A stretch of 64,000 nucleotides of DNA, from positions 1 to 64,000 of the forward strand of contig NZ_JAUCBM010000005.1 of the NCBI RefSeq assembly GCF_030362795.1. Direction: 5' to 3'. Shown here piece after piece: positions 30,031 through 35,323 of this stretch (its first letter is position 1; the number at the start of each line of letters is the position of its first letter). A program made the position numbers and the translations under genes. The notes under the pieces were generated by a model. It had not been told where the DNA came from and searched no databases. It saw only the letters and a program-made list of their open reading frames with translations. The DNA comes from Pseudochrobactrum kiredjianiae. Lineage in GTDB: Bacteria; Pseudomonadota; Alphaproteobacteria; Rhizobiales; Rhizobiaceae.

Positions 30031-32958
30031 TTATTCAGCAGCCAGTGTTTTTCCGTCCGGACGGCGTTCCAGCAGTTCTTTGAGGAAATGGCCGGTATAA
30101 GAGCGCGGTTCGGCCACAATATCTTCCGGCCGACCAACCGCAACGATTTCACCGCCACCATCACCGCCTTCCGGTCCCAGATCGAGCACCCAGTCAGCGG
30201 TTTTGATGACTTCGAGATTGTGCTCAATCACGGCAACCGTATTACCCTGATCGACCAGTTCATGCAGCACTTCCAGAAGTTTGGCAACGTCATGGAAATG
30301 CAGGCCGGTTGTCGGCTCATCAAGAATATACAATGTCTTGCCGGTTGCGCGACGGGACAGTTCTTTAGCAAGCTTAACACGCTGGGCTTCACCACCGGAG
30401 AGGGTGGTCGCCTGCTGGCCGATCTTAATATAGCCGAGGCCGACACGGTGCAGGGTTTCCATCTTGTCACGGATACTCGGCACCGCAGAGAAGAACTCTA
30501 CGCCTTCTTCAACCGTCATATCAAGAACATCGGCGATGCTTTTGCCTTTAAACAGAACTTCCAGTGTTTCACGATTATAGCGTTTGCCGTTACAGACATC
30601 GCAAGTCACGTAAACATCGGGCAGAAAGTGCATTTCAATCTTGATAACACCGTCACCCTGACAGGCTTCACAGCGTCCGCCTTTGACGTTGAATGAGAAA
30701 CGGCCAGGCTGATAGCCACGTGTCTTGGCTTCCGGCAGACCGGCAAACCAGTCGCGGATTGGGGTGAAAGCACCGGTATAGGTTGCTGGGTTGGAACGCG
30801 GTGTGCGGCCGATTGGTGACTGATCAATATCAATCACCTTGTCGAGCAGTTCCAGACCTTCAATCCGGTCATGTTCGGCCGGATGTTCGCGGGAGCCCAT
30901 GATTTTGCGTGAGGCAGCTTTATACAGGGTTTCAATCAGGAAGGTGGACTTACCGCCACCGGATACTCCGGTTACAGCTGTGAAAGTGCCGAGCGGAATT
31001 TCACCTGTTACGTTTTTAAGATTATTGGCACGGGCACCAACAACTTTAATACGCTTGGATTTGGTGATCTTGCGGCGTTCTGCGGGAACCATAACCTGCA
31101 ATGCGCCGGACAGATATTTGCCGGTGATCGAATTTGGATTGTTTATCACTTCGGACGGCGTGCCCTTAGCAATAATCTGACCACCATGAACACCTGCAGC
31201 CGGACCAATATCAACGACATAGTCGGCAGTGAGAATAGCATCTTCATCATGCTCAACCACAATCACGGTATTGCCGAGATCACGTAGATGACGCAGTGTG
31301 TCGAGCAGACGGGCATTGTCGCGCTGATGCAAGCCAATGGATGGCTCATCAAGCACATAGAGAACGCCGGTGAGACCGGAGCCGATCTGCGAGGCCAGAC
31401 GAATACGCTGGCTTTCACCACCAGACAGGGTGCCGGAATTACGCGACAGTGACAGATAATCCAGTCCGACATCGTTGAGGAAGCGCAGGCGTTCACGGAT
31501 TTCTTTCAGAATACGAGCAGCAATTTCGTTCTGCTTGTCATTGAATTGCTGGTCGATGGTGCTGAACCACTGGTCAGCATTGCGGATCGACATTTCTGTC
31601 AGCTGGCCGATATGCATCTTGCCGACTTTAACCGCCAATGCTTCCGGTTTCAGACGATAGCCTGCGCAAGCCGGACAAGGCGTGGCCGACATATAGCGCT
31701 CAATCTCTTCACGCGACCAGTTGGAGTCCGTCTCCTTCCAACGGCGTTGCAAATTAGGAATAACACCTTCAAACGTCTTAGTGGTTTCGTAAGAACGTGA
31801 GCTGTCCTTATAGACAAAGGTAATTTCTTTACCCTTGGTGCCATGAAGCACAGCTTTTTTGGCATCTTCACTCAAATCCTGCCACTTATCTGTCAGTTTG
31901 AAACCAAAGGCTTTGCCCAGCGCTTCCAAAGTCTGATTATAATAAGGCGATGAGGATTTTGCCCAAGGCGCGATTGCCCCGTCTTTCATGCGCAGAGTTT
32001 CATCCGGCACAATCAAATTTGGGTCAATTGCCTGCTGTGAGCCAAGACCATCGCAGGTCGGGCAGGCACCAAACGGGTTGTTGAAGGAGAACAGGCGCGG
32101 CTCGATCTCGGCAATGGTAAAGCCGGAGACAGGACAAGCGAACTTCTCCGAGAACAACACGCGCTCATGGGTCTCATTCTTTGATTTATTGACGCTGTCT
32201 GCTGCGGTTGCTTCCGGTGGCAGCGGCTTGTCTGCGAATTCAGCAATGGCCAGACCTTCAGCCAGTTGCAGACAGGTTTCCAGACTGTCTGCCAGACGTG
32301 AAGCGAGATCAGGGCGCACCACAACGCGGTCGACCACCACATCAATATCGTGCTTGTATTTCTTGTCCAGTACCGGTGCATCGGCGATTTCATAGAATTC
32401 GCCGTCAATCTTGACGCGCTGGAAGCCTTTTTTCTGCAACTCAGCCAGTTCTTTACGGTATTCACCCTTACGGCCGCGCACAATTGGCGCCATAATAAAG
32501 AGGCGGGTGCCTTCTTCAAAGGTCATAACGCGGTCAACCATCTGGCTGACTGTCTGGCTCTCGATCGGCAGGCCGGTTGCAGGGGAATAAGGAATACCGA
32601 CACGCGCATAGAGCAGGCGCAGATAATCGTAAATCTCGGTGACAGTACCGACCGTTGAGCGCGGATTGCGGCTGGTGGTTTTCTGCTCAATGGAAATAGC
32701 AGGAGACAGACCATCAATCTGGTCGACATCCGGCTTTTGCATCATCTCCAAAAACTGGCGCGCATAAGCTGAGAGACTTTCGACATAACGACGCTGACCT
32801 TCCGCATAGATCGTATCGAAAGCGAGCGACGATTTACCCGAGCCGGATAGACCGGTCATGACGATCAGCTTGTCACGAGGCAGATCGATGTCAATATTTT
32901 TCAGATTATGTTCGCGGGCGCCGCGAATGGAGATAAATTTTTGATCGCTCATCAGCAT
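30031..32958 (-). CDS. uvrA: Excinuclease ABC subunit A
   Basis: UvrA recognises DNA lesions and loads UvrB in nucleotide excision repair. The 975 residues contain two ABC ATPase halves: Walker [10 protein letters not shown] near residue 37 with signature LSGGESQR, and Walker [10 protein letters not shown] near residue 660 with signature LSGGEAQR. The zinc-binding region [14 protein letters not shown] followed by [10 protein letters not shown] is intact. Two ATGs are possible, at 32958 and 32952; the second gives the usual [17 protein letters not shown] start. A LexA-type box lies about 200 bp upstream. Confidence 0.97.
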
Positions 32959-33156
32959 TGTGCCTGCGTTGGATGCATAACAATTGGCCGGTTAAATCAG
33001 ACAAGCAGGGGTTACGCTGTCTGCAGCCGAAACTCAGACATTTATATAGGTGCGCTCTGCTTAAACTCAATATTGGCCGGATTTACATAAGAATGATCCT
33101 GCACTGACCTGTAAGAGGACTCATGCAGACCATTCTTTGCTTTGATGTGATTTATA

Positions 33157-33171
33157 GAACAAAATATGAAC
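33157..33171 (-). promoter_or_regulatory. LexA (SOS) box upstream of uvrA
   Basis: GTTC-N7-GTTC, the alphaproteobacterial LexA consensus, reads exactly on the minus strand (GTTCATATTTTGTTC). It is 199 bp before the uvrA ATG at 32958. uvrA is SOS-controlled in relatives such as Rhizobium. The distance is longer than usual, so it could instead act on the unit to its right, whose TATAAT is about 77 bp away. Confidence 0.6.
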
Positions 33172-33247
33172 CTAAGTCCAGTCAGATTCTGAAACTGAGG
33201 TGAGGGAACTGGTATTTCTAATCTAAGCTCATCAAATAATGATGTAA

Positions 33248-33253
33248 TATAAT
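33248..33253 (+). promoter_or_regulatory. Candidate -10 element of the 33.3-kb RNA unit
   Basis: A perfect TATAAT occurs about 20 bp before the structured region that begins at 33271. No good -35 hexamer is present 17 bp upstream, so activity is uncertain. Confidence 0.35.
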
Positions 33254-33414
33254 GTGAAAAGCTGTGAGTTGACGGTCAGGCTTACGGGGAGCACACTGAA
33301 ACTGTCTTCAGCTCCAGCGGAGGAAAGGGGCTACCAGTCCCGAATTGCTGAAGACGGGCAGAAGCCCAGACAGGAAACTATTCTGTTCTGCGCGCAAACA
33401 GGAGGAATATAAGG

Positions 33415-33438
33415 ATGAGTCCACCTGACCATGCATGA
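33415..33438 (+). CDS. Seven-codon leader-like open frame
   Basis: AGGAGGA at 33400-33406 stands 8 bp before an ATG that opens the frame MSPPDHA and stops at once. The ribosome binding site is among the best in the window, and codons 4-6 form the 3' strand of the closing helix of the RNA domain, so a translating ribosome would open that helix. This could be a regulatory leader peptide or the relic of a lost gene. Confidence 0.3.
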   Translation: MSPPDHA

Positions 33439-33788
33439 CGATATTTTATCGTCGAAAATTAATGTTTTTTCTGAGACTACCGGATTTCTAAAAGAGCTAT
33501 CTGAAAAATAGTTTGAATAGAATGGTCAATGACGGAATTTACCTGTCTGAATGCTTCGGCAACAGATGACGCAGTTTCGGATTTGCTGAAAGTGGTACGG
33601 TTCTGAAAATTATGGCTGAATGCCATATCTGCGGTTCGGAACCTGACTGTCACAAATGAAAGTTGAAGTGTGGTTTTACTGAAAGAGCAACAATTTATCT
33701 CTACTGCAAATAAACTGCTTTCATGGCAGATGTTTGAAAACTTGTCGGCGAATGACTACCGGCATAATGGGATGAACCCCAATCAAAA

Positions 33789-33827
33789 GCCCTGCGCGCC
33801 AAAATAAGTGAGCGGCAGGGCATTTTT
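33789..33827 (+). terminator. Terminator of the 33.3-kb RNA unit
   Basis: GCCCTGC and GCAGGGC form a GC-rich stem, with CGC/GCG pairing inside, followed by ATTTTTGTATTTTTT. No protein gene ends nearby on this strand, so the terminator itself points to a non-coding transcript from the left. Confidence 0.75.
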
Positions 33828-33970
33828 GTATTTTTTATTCTAATTGTTTCCGCGCGCATGAACTGCCGCTCTACTTATCTCTCCCCAACATAGCGATGAT
33901 GACATAAACCTGCGGGCAGCGGCGGGATGAAAGCAATTGCGCGGATAAATTTGCGGTGCTTATATGCTCT

Positions 33971-34059
33971 AGAGCGCCGTGTGCCATACTTGGCACACAA
34001 AGGTCGCTCTAACACTTTAAAATTAGAGCATAATTTTTCCTTAAAAGGAATTATGCTCT
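33971..34059. repeat. Palindromic repeat, family A
   Basis: Reference copy of the family: a 40-nt hairpin with AGAGCG/CGCTCT ends and inner GTGTGCCA/TGGCACAC stem (33971-34010), a 14-nt AACACTTTAAAATT linker, and a second hairpin AGAGCATAATT/AATTATGCTCT (34025-34059). It lies in non-coding sequence upstream of the P1 peptidase gene. Confidence 0.78.
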
Positions 34060-34207
34060 AGGCGGTATCGGGGAGCATGACGACATACCGCCACGGAGGG
34101 TTCTCAAAAATCAGGACAAAGACGCTGTTTTTGTCTGTAACAGTTTCGTGCTGAGGTGGCTCCTGCCTTGGCTGAAATCGTTGGATTGCAGAATATGGAA
34201 ATTATTA

Positions 34208-35323
34208 ATGACAAGCACATCGCATAAACCGCGCGCACGCGATCTCGGTATTCCGTTTACAGGCACAACAGGCCCGAATAACGCCATTACCGATGTTGAA
34301 GGCGTGACCGTCGGTTATTCGACGATTATCGAGGGCGAGGGCAAGCTTGAAACCGGCAAAGGGCCTGCGCGCACCGGTGTCACGGCTATTCTGCCGCGCG
34401 GAAAGACATTTAATCCGGTTTTTGCCGGCTGGACATCTTTCAACGGTAATGGCGAGATGACCGGTACGACATGGATTGAGGAGAGCGGTTTTCTCGAAGG
34501 GCCGATAGCGATCACCAATACGCATAGTGTGGGTGTGGTGCGAGATTCCGTGGTGTCTTGGTTGATTGATAATAATCTGACAGGGCCGCATTTCAAGGAC
34601 TTGTACTGGCTGCTGCCGGTGGTTGCTGAAACATGGGACGGTATCCTCAACGATATCAACGGCATGCATGTGAAGAAAGAGCATGTCTATGCCGCGCTGG
34701 ATAGTGCAACGGGTGGCAAAATTGCTGAAGGTAATGTCGGCGGCGGCACCGGCATGAATCTGTTTCATTTTAAAGGTGGTACCGGCACTTCATCGCGCAA
34801 GCTGAGTGAAGATGAAGGCGATTATACTGTTGGTGTGCTGGTACAGGGCAATTTCGGCAGACGGCAGGATCTGATGATTGCCGGTGTGCCGGTTGGTGAG
34901 GAAATCACCGAGCTGATGCAGGATACATCCTGGACACGTGAAGAGAGCGGCTCGATTATCGTTGTCGTGGCAACGGATGCGCCGCTGTTGCCGCATCAAC
35001 TCAAGCGGTTGACTCGCCGTGTCTCCGTCGGTCTTGGCCGTGTCGGTGGTTTTGGTGCCAATGGCAGCGGAGATATTTTCATTGCCTTCTCAACGGCCAA
35101 TCCTGATGCCTATAGCCGAGAAACAAACAGCCAGTTGGAGATGGTCTCCAATCATAAAATGGATCCGCTTATTCATGCCACAGCCTTGGCTACGGAAGAA
35201 GCGATTATCAATGCGATGATTGCTGCGGAAACAATGAAAGGGCGGGATGATAATATCTCTTACGCACTTCCACATGACCGGCTTGTTGAAGTGATGAAAA
35301 AATATAACAGGCTCAGGAAATAA
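34208..35323 (+). CDS. P1-family (DmpA/BapA-like) N-terminal-nucleophile aminopeptidase
   Basis: This family of beta-peptidyl or D-/L-aminopeptidases matures by self-cleavage before a Ser that becomes the nucleophile. With the start at 34208 the protein has 371 residues and begins near PRARDLGIPFTGTTGPNNAITDV (residues 8-30). The segment GD-YTVGVLVQGNFG (about 204-217) and GSIIVVVATDAPLLP (from 248) are family signatures; the predicted cut is between G248 and S249, matching Gly249-Ser250 in DmpA. The frame extends upstream to a GTG at 34148, but those 20 residues are not expected. No signal peptide is seen. The natural substrate is unknown. Confidence 0.87.
   Translation: MTSTSHKPRARDLGIPFTGTTGPNNAITDVEGVTVGYSTIIEGEGKLETGKGPARTGVTAILPRGKTFNPVFAGWTSFNGNGEMTGTTWIEESGFLEGPIAITNTHSVGVVRDSVVSWLIDNNLTGPHFKDLYWLLPVVAETWDGILNDINGMHVKKEHVYAALDSATGGKIAEGNVGGGTGMNLFHFKGGTGTSSRKLSEDEGDYTVGVLVQGNFGRRQDLMIAGVPVGEEITELMQDTSWTREESGSIIVVVATDAPLLPHQLKRLTRRVSVGLGRVGGFGANGSGDIFIAFSTANPDAYSRETNSQLEMVSNHKMDPLIHATALATEEAIINAMIAAETMKGRDDNISYALPHDRLVEVMKKYNRLRK

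What the first reader, a model, noticed from the sequence alone, without database searches (positions are those of the whole stretch)
33240..33830. Candidate non-coding RNA unit in the 1.25-kb gap right of uvrA
The stretch has a TATAAT at 33248, a compact multi-helix domain closed by GGTCAGG/CCTGACC (33274-33280 with 33424-33430), a 9-bp internal helix, two further hairpins, and a strong terminator at 33789-33827 with no protein gene to serve. Known riboswitch and housekeeping RNA cores do not fit. The closed domain that runs into an AGGAGGA site and a broken frame also recalls HEARO/omega-RNA elements that precede iscB, so a solo or decayed element of that kind is one hypothesis; I cannot support it beyond layout.
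Basis: partly seen in the sequence, partly recalled or inferred. Interest (0 to 1): 0.65.

Follow-up and report, generated by a model that had tools for sequence, protein, structure and literature searches.

The report
Conserved RNA gene with Pro-Pro micro-ORF
Beside the DNA-repair gene uvrA lies a structured RNA gene of roughly 525 bases, kept in about thirty genera of Brucella-like bacteria and without an entry in the Rfam library, that carries a tiny reading frame starting Met-any-Pro-Pro which may park a ribosome on the RNA.

Summary
The unit is present in 7 of 7 genomes of the genus (Pseudochrobactrum by named records), folds with compensatory changes (10 of 75 pairs change on both sides; shuffled mean 2.7) and matches no Rfam family. 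The proposed closing helix is not conserved; its 5' arm falls in the spacer of the conserved promoter (TTGACG-N17-CACACT, 33269-33297), so the transcript is inferred as about 33303-33828. The 'AGGAGGA plus broken frame' is a conserved micro-ORF, ATGAGTCCACCTGACCATGCATGA. A covariance model of the 3' end, which does not contain the micro-ORF, gave 34 hits at the uvrA/ssb locus outside the two main training genera. All 34 (33 without one training sequence) carry, 99-231 nt upstream, a Shine-Dalgarno core and M-x-P-P, with peptides of otherwise little similarity. A hairpin starts 25-28 nt from the A of the AUG in 51 of 62 distinct sequences. In the window's genus the RNA persists although ssb has moved away. 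Best reading: an autonomous regulatory RNA whose folding or lifetime is set by a ribosome paused at Pro-Pro-Asp. Sequestration of the Shine-Dalgarno site by the same codons is a serious rival.

The parts
33157..33171 (.). LexA (SOS) box GAACAAAATATGAAC between uvrA and the RNA promoter; probably serves uvrA
   Evidence: Sequence; GAACN7GAAC in 26 of 26 Brucella/Falsochrobactrum-type loci. The name SOS box (GAAC-N7-GAAC, alphaproteobacteria) is recalled.
33269..33297 (+). Conserved promoter TTGACG-N17-CACACT of the RNA
   Evidence: TTGACN-N17-CANNNN found within about 330 nt upstream of the micro-ORF in 57 of 62 distinct sequences (about 2% expected by arithmetic, no shuffles run); spacer is the variable stretch in the genus alignment. 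No transcript data.
33303..33828 (+). Inferred transcript, about 526 nt; start inferred from the -10, end from the terminator
   Evidence: Conserved in 7 of 7 genomes, 80.6-97.6% identical; 10 of 75 pairs change on both sides, shuffled mean 2.7
33304..33355 (+). First long helix, GTCTTCAGC with GCTGAAGAC
   Evidence: 8 of 9 pairs never vary, one is unpaired in one genome, so covariation is silent
33400..33405 (+). Shine-Dalgarno site AGGAGG
   Evidence: Invariant in the genus; a GGAG/GAGG/AGGA core precedes all 62 micro-ORFs by construction of the search
33415..33438 (+). Micro-ORF ATG AGT CCA CCT GAC CAT GCA TGA, MSPPDHA
   Evidence: Frame in 7 of 7 of the genus; SD plus M-x-P-P upstream on the same strand in 34 of 34 uvrA/ssb-locus hits of a model that does not contain it, one of them a training sequence
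33399..33427 (+). Predicted hairpin CAGGAGGA/TCCACCTG that would hide the Shine-Dalgarno site with codons 2-5
   Evidence: Codon 3-4 C's predicted paired upstream in 58 of 62 local folds, 46 of 62 when the next hairpin is included; own/swapped test 52 of 2000 and 29 of 2000
33436..33454 (+). Hairpin H1 just downstream of the micro-ORF (+22 from A of AUG here, +25 to +28 in most other sequences)
   Evidence: One pair A-T to G-C in one genome; perfect stem of 6 at +25..+28 in 52 of 62, shuffles mean 4.7, max 11
33496..33512 (+). Hairpin of the middle domain, one pair changed on both sides
   Evidence: helix 3
33533..33579 (+). Two-part hairpin in the most variable stretch, 7 pairs changed on both sides
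   Evidence: helices 4 and 5
33599..33643 (+). Stem GGTTCTGAA with TTCGGAACC and inner stem TATGGC/GCCATA
   Evidence: helices 6 and 7 (one-sided changes only)
33707..33736 (+). Hairpin with inner stem, one pair changed on both sides
   Evidence: helix 8
33742..33765 (+). 3' module hairpin A
   Evidence: 5 of 7 pairs change on both sides across 31 sequences, 91.7% of cells paired
33769..33779 (+). 3' module hairpin B
   Evidence: 2 of 4 pairs change on both sides; the inner pair is unpaired in 7 of 31
33789..33828 (+). Terminator GCCCTGC..GCAGGGC with U run
   Evidence: 7-bp stem; one pair T-A in 23 and C-G in 8 of 31 sequences

Best explanation
The stretch is an autonomous RNA gene. It has its own promoter and terminator, about 526 nt in the window and about 370 nt (estimate) in Brucella-type loci, and it is transcribed away from uvrA. 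Its 5' half carries a Shine-Dalgarno site and a micro-ORF of which only M-x-P-P-(D) is kept. A ribosome that starts there makes fMet-x-Pro-Pro and slows or stops when it must join Asp, the kind of pause EF-P relieves; a hairpin placed just in front of that ribosome would hold it. The parked ribosome covers the Shine-Dalgarno site and the start of the hairpin. It thereby sets the fold, or the lifetime, of the RNA, and the 3' module (hairpin A, hairpin B, terminator), which is the part alignable across genera, is the part that acts, probably in trans. Shown by computation: conservation, structure, promoter pattern, position of micro-ORF and hairpin, independence from ssb. Inferred: transcription, translation, pausing, the effect on the RNA, and action in trans.
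For: Unit in 7 of 7 genus genomes. Covariation. Four longer reading frames tested in the unit give dN/dS 0.34 to 1.14 against 0.02 for the first 300 codons of uvrA in the same genomes; the seven-codon frame itself has one change in 7 genomes, non-synonymous, so it says nothing either way. The 3'-end model R3 does not contain the micro-ORF. Its 44 hits at E up to 0.05 outside genera g1 and g17 split into 34 at the uvrA or ssb locus and 10 elsewhere; 34 of 34 have SD plus M-x-P-P, 99-231 nt upstream on the same strand, 0 on the opposite strand; 0 of 10 elsewhere. One of the 34 (L097) is the training sequence L043 itself, so the free count is 33 of 33. In 62 distinct sequences codon 5 is D 56, K 4, N 2; frame length runs from 5 to 29 codons, one frame ending right after MSPPD, so only the start seems selected. 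The best hairpin starts at +25..+28 in 51 of 62 although its arms differ (18 different first hexamers). A bacterial ribosome with codon 4 in its P site ends near +25/+26 (recalled). PMC4140641 (passages) reports that PPD and PPN were found only among pausing PPX sequences in its two sets. PMC6460261 (passages) describes proline-codon frames mgtL and mgtP in leader RNAs through which EF-P acts. In the window's genome ssb lies on other contigs and the RNA stays.
Against: No transcript, ribosome-profiling or EF-P data were available. In the window's own genus H1 starts at +22, 3 nt inside the expected ribosome edge, and in 5 further sequences of the 62 it starts at +24, +30, +36, +41 or +45. Six of 62 have PPK or PPN, and the L238 copy has PPK; PMC4140641 says PP-basic pauses only with an acidic residue before it, which only one of these PPK cases (MEPPK) has, and PP-amide may not pause after a hydroxyl residue (both PPN cases are MTPPN). 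The C's of codons 3 and 4 are also predicted to pair with the Shine-Dalgarno region in 58 of 62 local folds, so their invariance may be an RNA matter. The pattern that collected the 62 required an SD core and CCNCCN, so both are by construction in that table; free of that are the 33 of 33 count (as presence against absence) and the SD-led frames. 13 of the 62 come from the two main training genera, and sequences within a genus are not independent. No target in trans was sought or found.
Confidence: 0.4

Rival explanations
1. Shine-Dalgarno gate: codons 2-5 are kept because UCCNCC pairs with GGAGG; the hairpin opens with heat, a ligand or an RNA partner and so controls initiation. Pro-Pro is a by-product.
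For: 58 of 62 local folds pair the codon 3-4 C's upstream, 46 of 62 when the next hairpin is included (no random-sequence control was run for this). Own pairs fold better than swapped ones: 52 of 2000 permutations as low by MFE and 29 of 2000 by duplex energy, 55 sequences without the seven Brucella-type ones. The codon 3 wobble base would face a mismatch and is A or G.
Against: The SD-AUG spacing varies (first GGAG core 5 to 21 nt from AUG) while CCNCCN stays exactly at codons 3-4 in the 34 hits; Asp at codon 5 is not explained; the swap signal is modest and ignores relatedness.
Confidence: 0.25
2. Transcription attenuator of ssb: the RNA is the 5' leader of ssb, the micro-ORF pause chooses between terminator and read-through, as in mgtL/mgtP leaders.
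For: An SSB start was recognised downstream on the same strand in 18 of the 24 positive survey loci; the unit ends in a terminator.
Against: In the window's genus the next gene is a peptidase S58 and in the window's genome ssb is on other contigs, yet the unit is kept. A second GAACN7GAAC box precedes ssb in the three loci where I read it (L030, L043, L238), suggesting its own promoter; start of terminator to ssb is 221 to 589 nt in the 5 loci where both were found.
Confidence: 0.15
3. Plain trans-acting small RNA: the 3' module pairs with mRNAs; the initiation site is a ribosome platform or target-like motif without a translational role.
For: The 3' module aligns without large gaps between genera and covaries.
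Against: Does not explain M-x-P-P in 33 of 33 or the near-fixed hairpin spacing.
Confidence: 0.12
4. A functional micropeptide is the product.
For: M-[STN]-P-P-D is nearly constant in amino acids.
Against: Length 5 to 29 residues and codons 6-8 highly variable; one frame stops right after MSPPD.
Confidence: 0.04
5. HEARO/omega RNA or another decayed mobile element.
For: Layout only.
Against: No Rfam match; no nuclease gene beside it; one DNA copy in the genome (the second hit of model R3 is an unrelated terminator); kept at one locus in about 30 genera.
Confidence: 0.01

Closest known systems
mgtL and mgtP proline-codon leader ORFs of Salmonella (EF-P-responsive leaders)
   Same: Short frame with early proline codons inside a structured RNA with an attenuator or terminator; pausing at proline is the switch (PMC6460261, passages)
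   Different: Those leaders precede the gene they control; here the RNA persists without a constant downstream gene, and only M-x-P-P at codons 3-4 plus a hairpin at near-fixed distance is kept
BSnc121, small RNA of Brucella suis (116 nt, Northern; BR_RS05430-BR_RS05435, orientation <- <- ->; Table 1 of PMC9751625)
   Same: Orientation fits ssb <- RNA <- uvrA -> ; by recalled gene order the locus may be near uvrA
   Different: Not verified: no B. suis coordinates were at hand; it would be at most a fragment
HEARO / omega RNA
   Same: A structured RNA followed by a Shine-Dalgarno site
   Different: No match, no IscB, conserved at one locus
Dual-function small RNAs with a small ORF, e.g. SgrS/SgrT (recalled)
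   Same: Small RNA with an initiation site
   Different: Here the peptide beyond codon 5 is not conserved

Membership tests
HEARO / omega RNA | Match to the Rfam covariance model | tested here: not met
   0 matches at gathering score in the window and no HEARO match at E up to 10 on 32950-34220
HEARO / omega RNA | IscB/HNH gene next to the RNA | tested here: not met
   Neighbours are UvrA and Peptidase_S58; the two minus-strand frames tested in the gap match no Pfam family
Known Rfam families in general | Score above gathering threshold | tested here: not met
   Window; 13 homologous loci; L030 at E up to 5 gave one snoRNA chance match
tRNA / tmRNA | ARAGORN detection | tested here: not met
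   0 genes in the window
Proline-codon leader ORF (mgtL/mgtP type) | Short ORF with early proline codons and a Shine-Dalgarno site in a structured RNA | tested here: met
   33 of 33 non-training locus hits have SD plus M-x-P-P; translation itself not shown
Proline-codon leader ORF (mgtL/mgtP type) | Lies in the 5' leader of the gene it controls | tested here: not met
   No constant downstream gene: ssb in 18 of 24 positive survey loci, peptidase S58 in the window's genus
Proline-codon leader ORF (mgtL/mgtP type) | Response to EF-P or charged tRNA-Pro | not testable with these tools
   Needs toeprint or an efp mutant
Small protein gene | Purifying selection on the encoded peptide | tested here: not met
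   dN/dS of four longer frames 0.34-1.14 against 0.02 for uvrA; peptide after codon 5 not conserved
BSnc121 | Same locus and strand as the B. suis small RNA | not testable with these tools
   Coordinates of BR_RS05430/05435 not available; only the table row was seen

The most novel reading that the evidence does not exclude
A stand-alone RNA class in which a ribosome, parked after four codons by M-x-Pro-Pro-Asp and a hairpin at its leading edge, is a working part of a regulatory RNA: a translation-rate (EF-P) sensor that is not the leader of any one gene and sits beside DNA-repair genes.
Probability: 0.3. Interest if true: 0.85.

Novelty: new variant of a known kind. Interest (0 to 1): 0.7.

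Why it matters
A structured RNA gene kept in about thirty genera, among them Brucella and its relatives, has no Rfam entry, and no description of it was seen in the paper searches made here (supplements not readable). If the micro-ORF works as proposed, it ties the state of translation (EF-P, proline) to an RNA gene beside the DNA-repair genes uvrA and ssb, and it gives a natural series of about 60 variants with near-fixed geometry to test what a start-proximal Pro-Pro pause and a hairpin in front of the ribosome do together.

Tried and rejected
Rejected: (1) the closing helix GGTCAGG/CCTGACC. (2) Protein coding: the 45-codon GTG frame at alignment columns 421-555 is open in 7 of 7 but has dN/dS 1.14; a minus-strand frame 0.57; MHDD.. 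0.72; MTIL.. 0.34; uvrA control 0.02. (3) HEARO, tmRNA, known Rfam families. (4) Plasmid or phage origin: no match. (5) The second R3 hit in the own genome, C12:17095-17184, is an ordinary terminator after an ORF. (6) The 10 R3 hits without uvrA/ssb context (L120, L124, L128, L132, L134-L139) were taken as terminator look-alikes, since none has the micro-ORF; further weak R3 hits inside the training genera (in G002 two, G005, G241) were not fetched. (7) R1 also hit L029 (E 0.048), where I saw no shared element by eye. (8) R2 over 397 order genomes gave two weak hits (E 0.06, 0.075) besides the window's own, not followed up. (9) Papers: searches. Seen: passages of PMC12772402, PMC4365724, PMC3927594, PMC4845025, PMC4140641, PMC1273637, PMC2245857, PMC6460261, PMC11611912; passages and part 1 of section 6 of PMC9751625. 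None describes this RNA, unless BSnc121 is a piece of it. PMC4845025 reports 1321 B. melitensis sRNAs whose coordinates I could not read, so the RNA may be listed there.

Dropped rows: of 34 loci considered, 8 were skipped: L049 (Gemmatimonadaceae, taken as chance), L060 (stretch ends before the terminator) and six Pseudochrobactrum loci already held; 26 remained, 25 distinct. In the synteny survey 98 of 111 non-genus genomes with a UvrA match were fetched (13 left out, all outside the family); some fetched stretches are cut by contig ends (L172, L173, L191, L198). Of the regions without the first pattern, 8 were read by eye or by SD-led frames.

Full report
What is there. The stretch 33000-34000 is found in 7 of 7 genomes of the genus; of the other 114 of 121 genomes searched, one had a match, and that is the SOS-box region alone. 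The unit is 80.6-97.6% identical between genomes. Two genomes have repeat-like insertions just outside it, one upstream and one downstream.

It is an RNA. Four longer reading frames in the unit show no strong purifying selection (dN/dS 0.34 to 1.14, against 0.02 for the first 300 codons of uvrA in the same genomes). A ten-helix structure built from the genus alignment has 98.1% of cells paired and 10 of 75 pairs with changes on both sides (shuffled mean 2.7; 0 of 500 shuffles reach it); the number of pair types is not above the shuffles (81 of 500), and slid versions are far worse. Because the structure was derived from the same alignment, the slid control favours it; the both-sides count is the fairer measure. 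Rfam gives nothing above threshold (chance matches).

Correction of the outline. In the 7 genomes 4 of its 7 pairs are broken in two to four genomes and none is compensated. Comparison with other genera explains this. In 57 of 62 distinct homologues TTGACN is followed after 17 nt by CANNNN upstream of the micro-ORF; in the window that is TTGACG 33269-33274, spacer 33275-33291, CACACT 33292-33297. The 5' arm is promoter spacer. The transcript is therefore inferred to run from about 33303 to 33828.

How homologues were found. Model R1 (from the 7 genus sequences) gave three weak hits outside the genus; two of them, in one other genus (E about 0.06), lie between uvrA and ssb and share the Shine-Dalgarno site, the micro-ORF, a hairpin and the terminator. 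A pattern scan of the genome-contig collection for GGAGGN{6,12}ATGAGTCCACCTGAY gave 32 stretches: 30 from Brucella, Ochrobactrum, Falsochrobactrum, Pseudochrobactrum or records named only as Rhizobiales, Brucellaceae or Hyphomicrobiales, one labelled Bacillus subtilis that is apparently a mislabelled genus member, and one Gemmatimonadaceae stretch taken as chance. Of 26 loci kept for alignment (chosen for having the terminator) 26 have the SOS box. In genus g17, which holds the Brucella- and Falsochrobactrum-type genomes, 35 of 35 genomes match a stretch with the RNA. A 31-sequence alignment of the 3' end (A7) has 8 of 21 pairs changed on both sides (shuffled mean 5.3, 1 of 500 as high), covariation score 0.201 against 0.125 (0 of 500); the number of pair types is not above shuffles (453 of 500).

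The decisive comparison. Model R3 from A7 covers only the last 100 nt and knows nothing of the micro-ORF. Over 394 family genomes it hit 58 genomes at E up to 0.05. Outside genera g1 and g17 there were 44 hits; all were examined, 16 returned as loci (L093-L108) and 28 fetched (L112-L139). Of these, 34 lie at the uvrA or ssb locus and 10 do not. All 34 carry a Shine-Dalgarno core followed by M-x-P-P, 99 to 231 nt upstream of the R3 match on the same strand, each once, and none on the other strand; 0 of the 10 has one. One of the 34, L097, is the training sequence L043 (Brucella endophytica) under another handle; without it the count is 33 of 33. Five more (L093-L096, L098) are of the same genus as L043. 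Over 397 genomes of the order R3 (E up to 0.001) found the window's own genome and one more, in another family, again between uvrA and ssb, with MKPPKSC...

Distribution. UvrA was found in 118 of 121 relatives; the region upstream was fetched for 98 non-genus genomes, one per genus, 65 of the family and 33 outside it. Twenty of 65 have ATGNNNCCNCCNGAY between uvrA and ssb (or the stretch end), and four more have M-x-P-P-K or M-x-P-P-N after a Shine-Dalgarno site, found by listing SD-led frames in 8 further regions; 0 of 33 outside the family by the first pattern; 0 on the reverse strand of the same regions. With four genera seen only by R3 (g129, g136, g139, g146) and the window's own, this makes at least 29 genera of the family, plus one outside. 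Of the 41 family regions without it, 35 have a uvrA-ssb gap of 197 to 436 nt.

Micro-ORF and hairpin. In 62 distinct sequences codon 3 is CCA 54, CCG 8; codon 4 CCG 30, CCT 27, CCC 5; codon 5 Asp 56, Lys 4, Asn 2; codon 2 is Thr 34, Ser 19, Asn 7, Glu 1, Ile 1; frames run from 5 to 29 codons. The collecting pattern required an SD core and CCNCCN. The best following hairpin starts at +25 to +28 in 51 of 62. A perfect stem of six pairs starts there in 52 of 62, against a shuffled mean of 4.7 and maximum of 11; outside +22 to +29 such stems are rare; 18 different first hexamers occur. In the window's genus the start is +22. In the 64-kb window this is the only SD-led M-x-P-P frame followed by an RA codon.

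Mechanism. Pro-Pro-Asp is a pausing sequence: PMC4140641 (passages) found PPD and PPN only in its pausing set, PPK in both, and PP-basic pausing only after an acidic residue. With codon 4 in the P site the ribosome's leading edge would lie near +25/+26 (recalled toeprint distance), where the hairpin begins in most sequences. I therefore propose a parked ribosome as part of the RNA. The same codons can also pair with the Shine-Dalgarno region (58 of 62 local folds; 46 of 62 when the next hairpin is included), and own combinations fold slightly better than swapped ones (52 of 2000 and 29 of 2000 permutations, 55 sequences). The two ideas can both be true and only experiments can separate them. 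What the RNA does next is unknown; action in trans is favoured because in the window's genus the next gene is a peptidase S58 and in the window's genome ssb lies on other contigs, while the RNA is intact.

Relation to what is known. It works most like the proline-codon leaders mgtL and mgtP (PMC6460261, passages) but fails their defining position in front of one regulated gene. It is no HEARO RNA. A Brucella suis small RNA, BSnc121, could be a fragment at this locus; only its table row was seen and the identification is a guess from recalled gene order. Searches for a published description; none of the listings or passages describes this RNA, but supplements were not readable.

Noticed in passing
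L058 (JAHREI010000002.1): A public record titled Bacillus subtilis strain SK6B4 carries the Pseudochrobactrum unit on a contig of 878377 bases, the same length as contig C2 of genome G001 of this genus: apparently mislabelled.
   Followed up: partly
window 33964-34060: Palindrome-rich intergenic repeat (GCTCTAGAGCG, TAGAGCATAATT); its left end recurs elsewhere in this and sister genomes, and similar-looking insertions lie in the uvrA gap of G004 and downstream of the unit in G005.
   Followed up: no
G000:C4:220689-221240 and G000:C9:12849-13319: Two ssb genes; the C4 copy lies near a frame that looks like gyrA by eye, no longer next to uvrA, unlike in related genera.
   Followed up: partly
window 33252-33258 and homologues: An ATGTGA element upstream of the RNA's -35 seems to recur (as AAATGTGA or GATCACATTT) in loci of other genera read; possible activator site.
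   Followed up: no
L096, L122, L126, L130, L180: Five of 62 homologues lack the exact TTGACN-N17-CA pattern, though each has a TTGAC upstream.
   Followed up: no
window 33789-33821: The terminator stem seems to carry a conserved bulge and a kept loop, more than a terminator needs.
   Followed up: no
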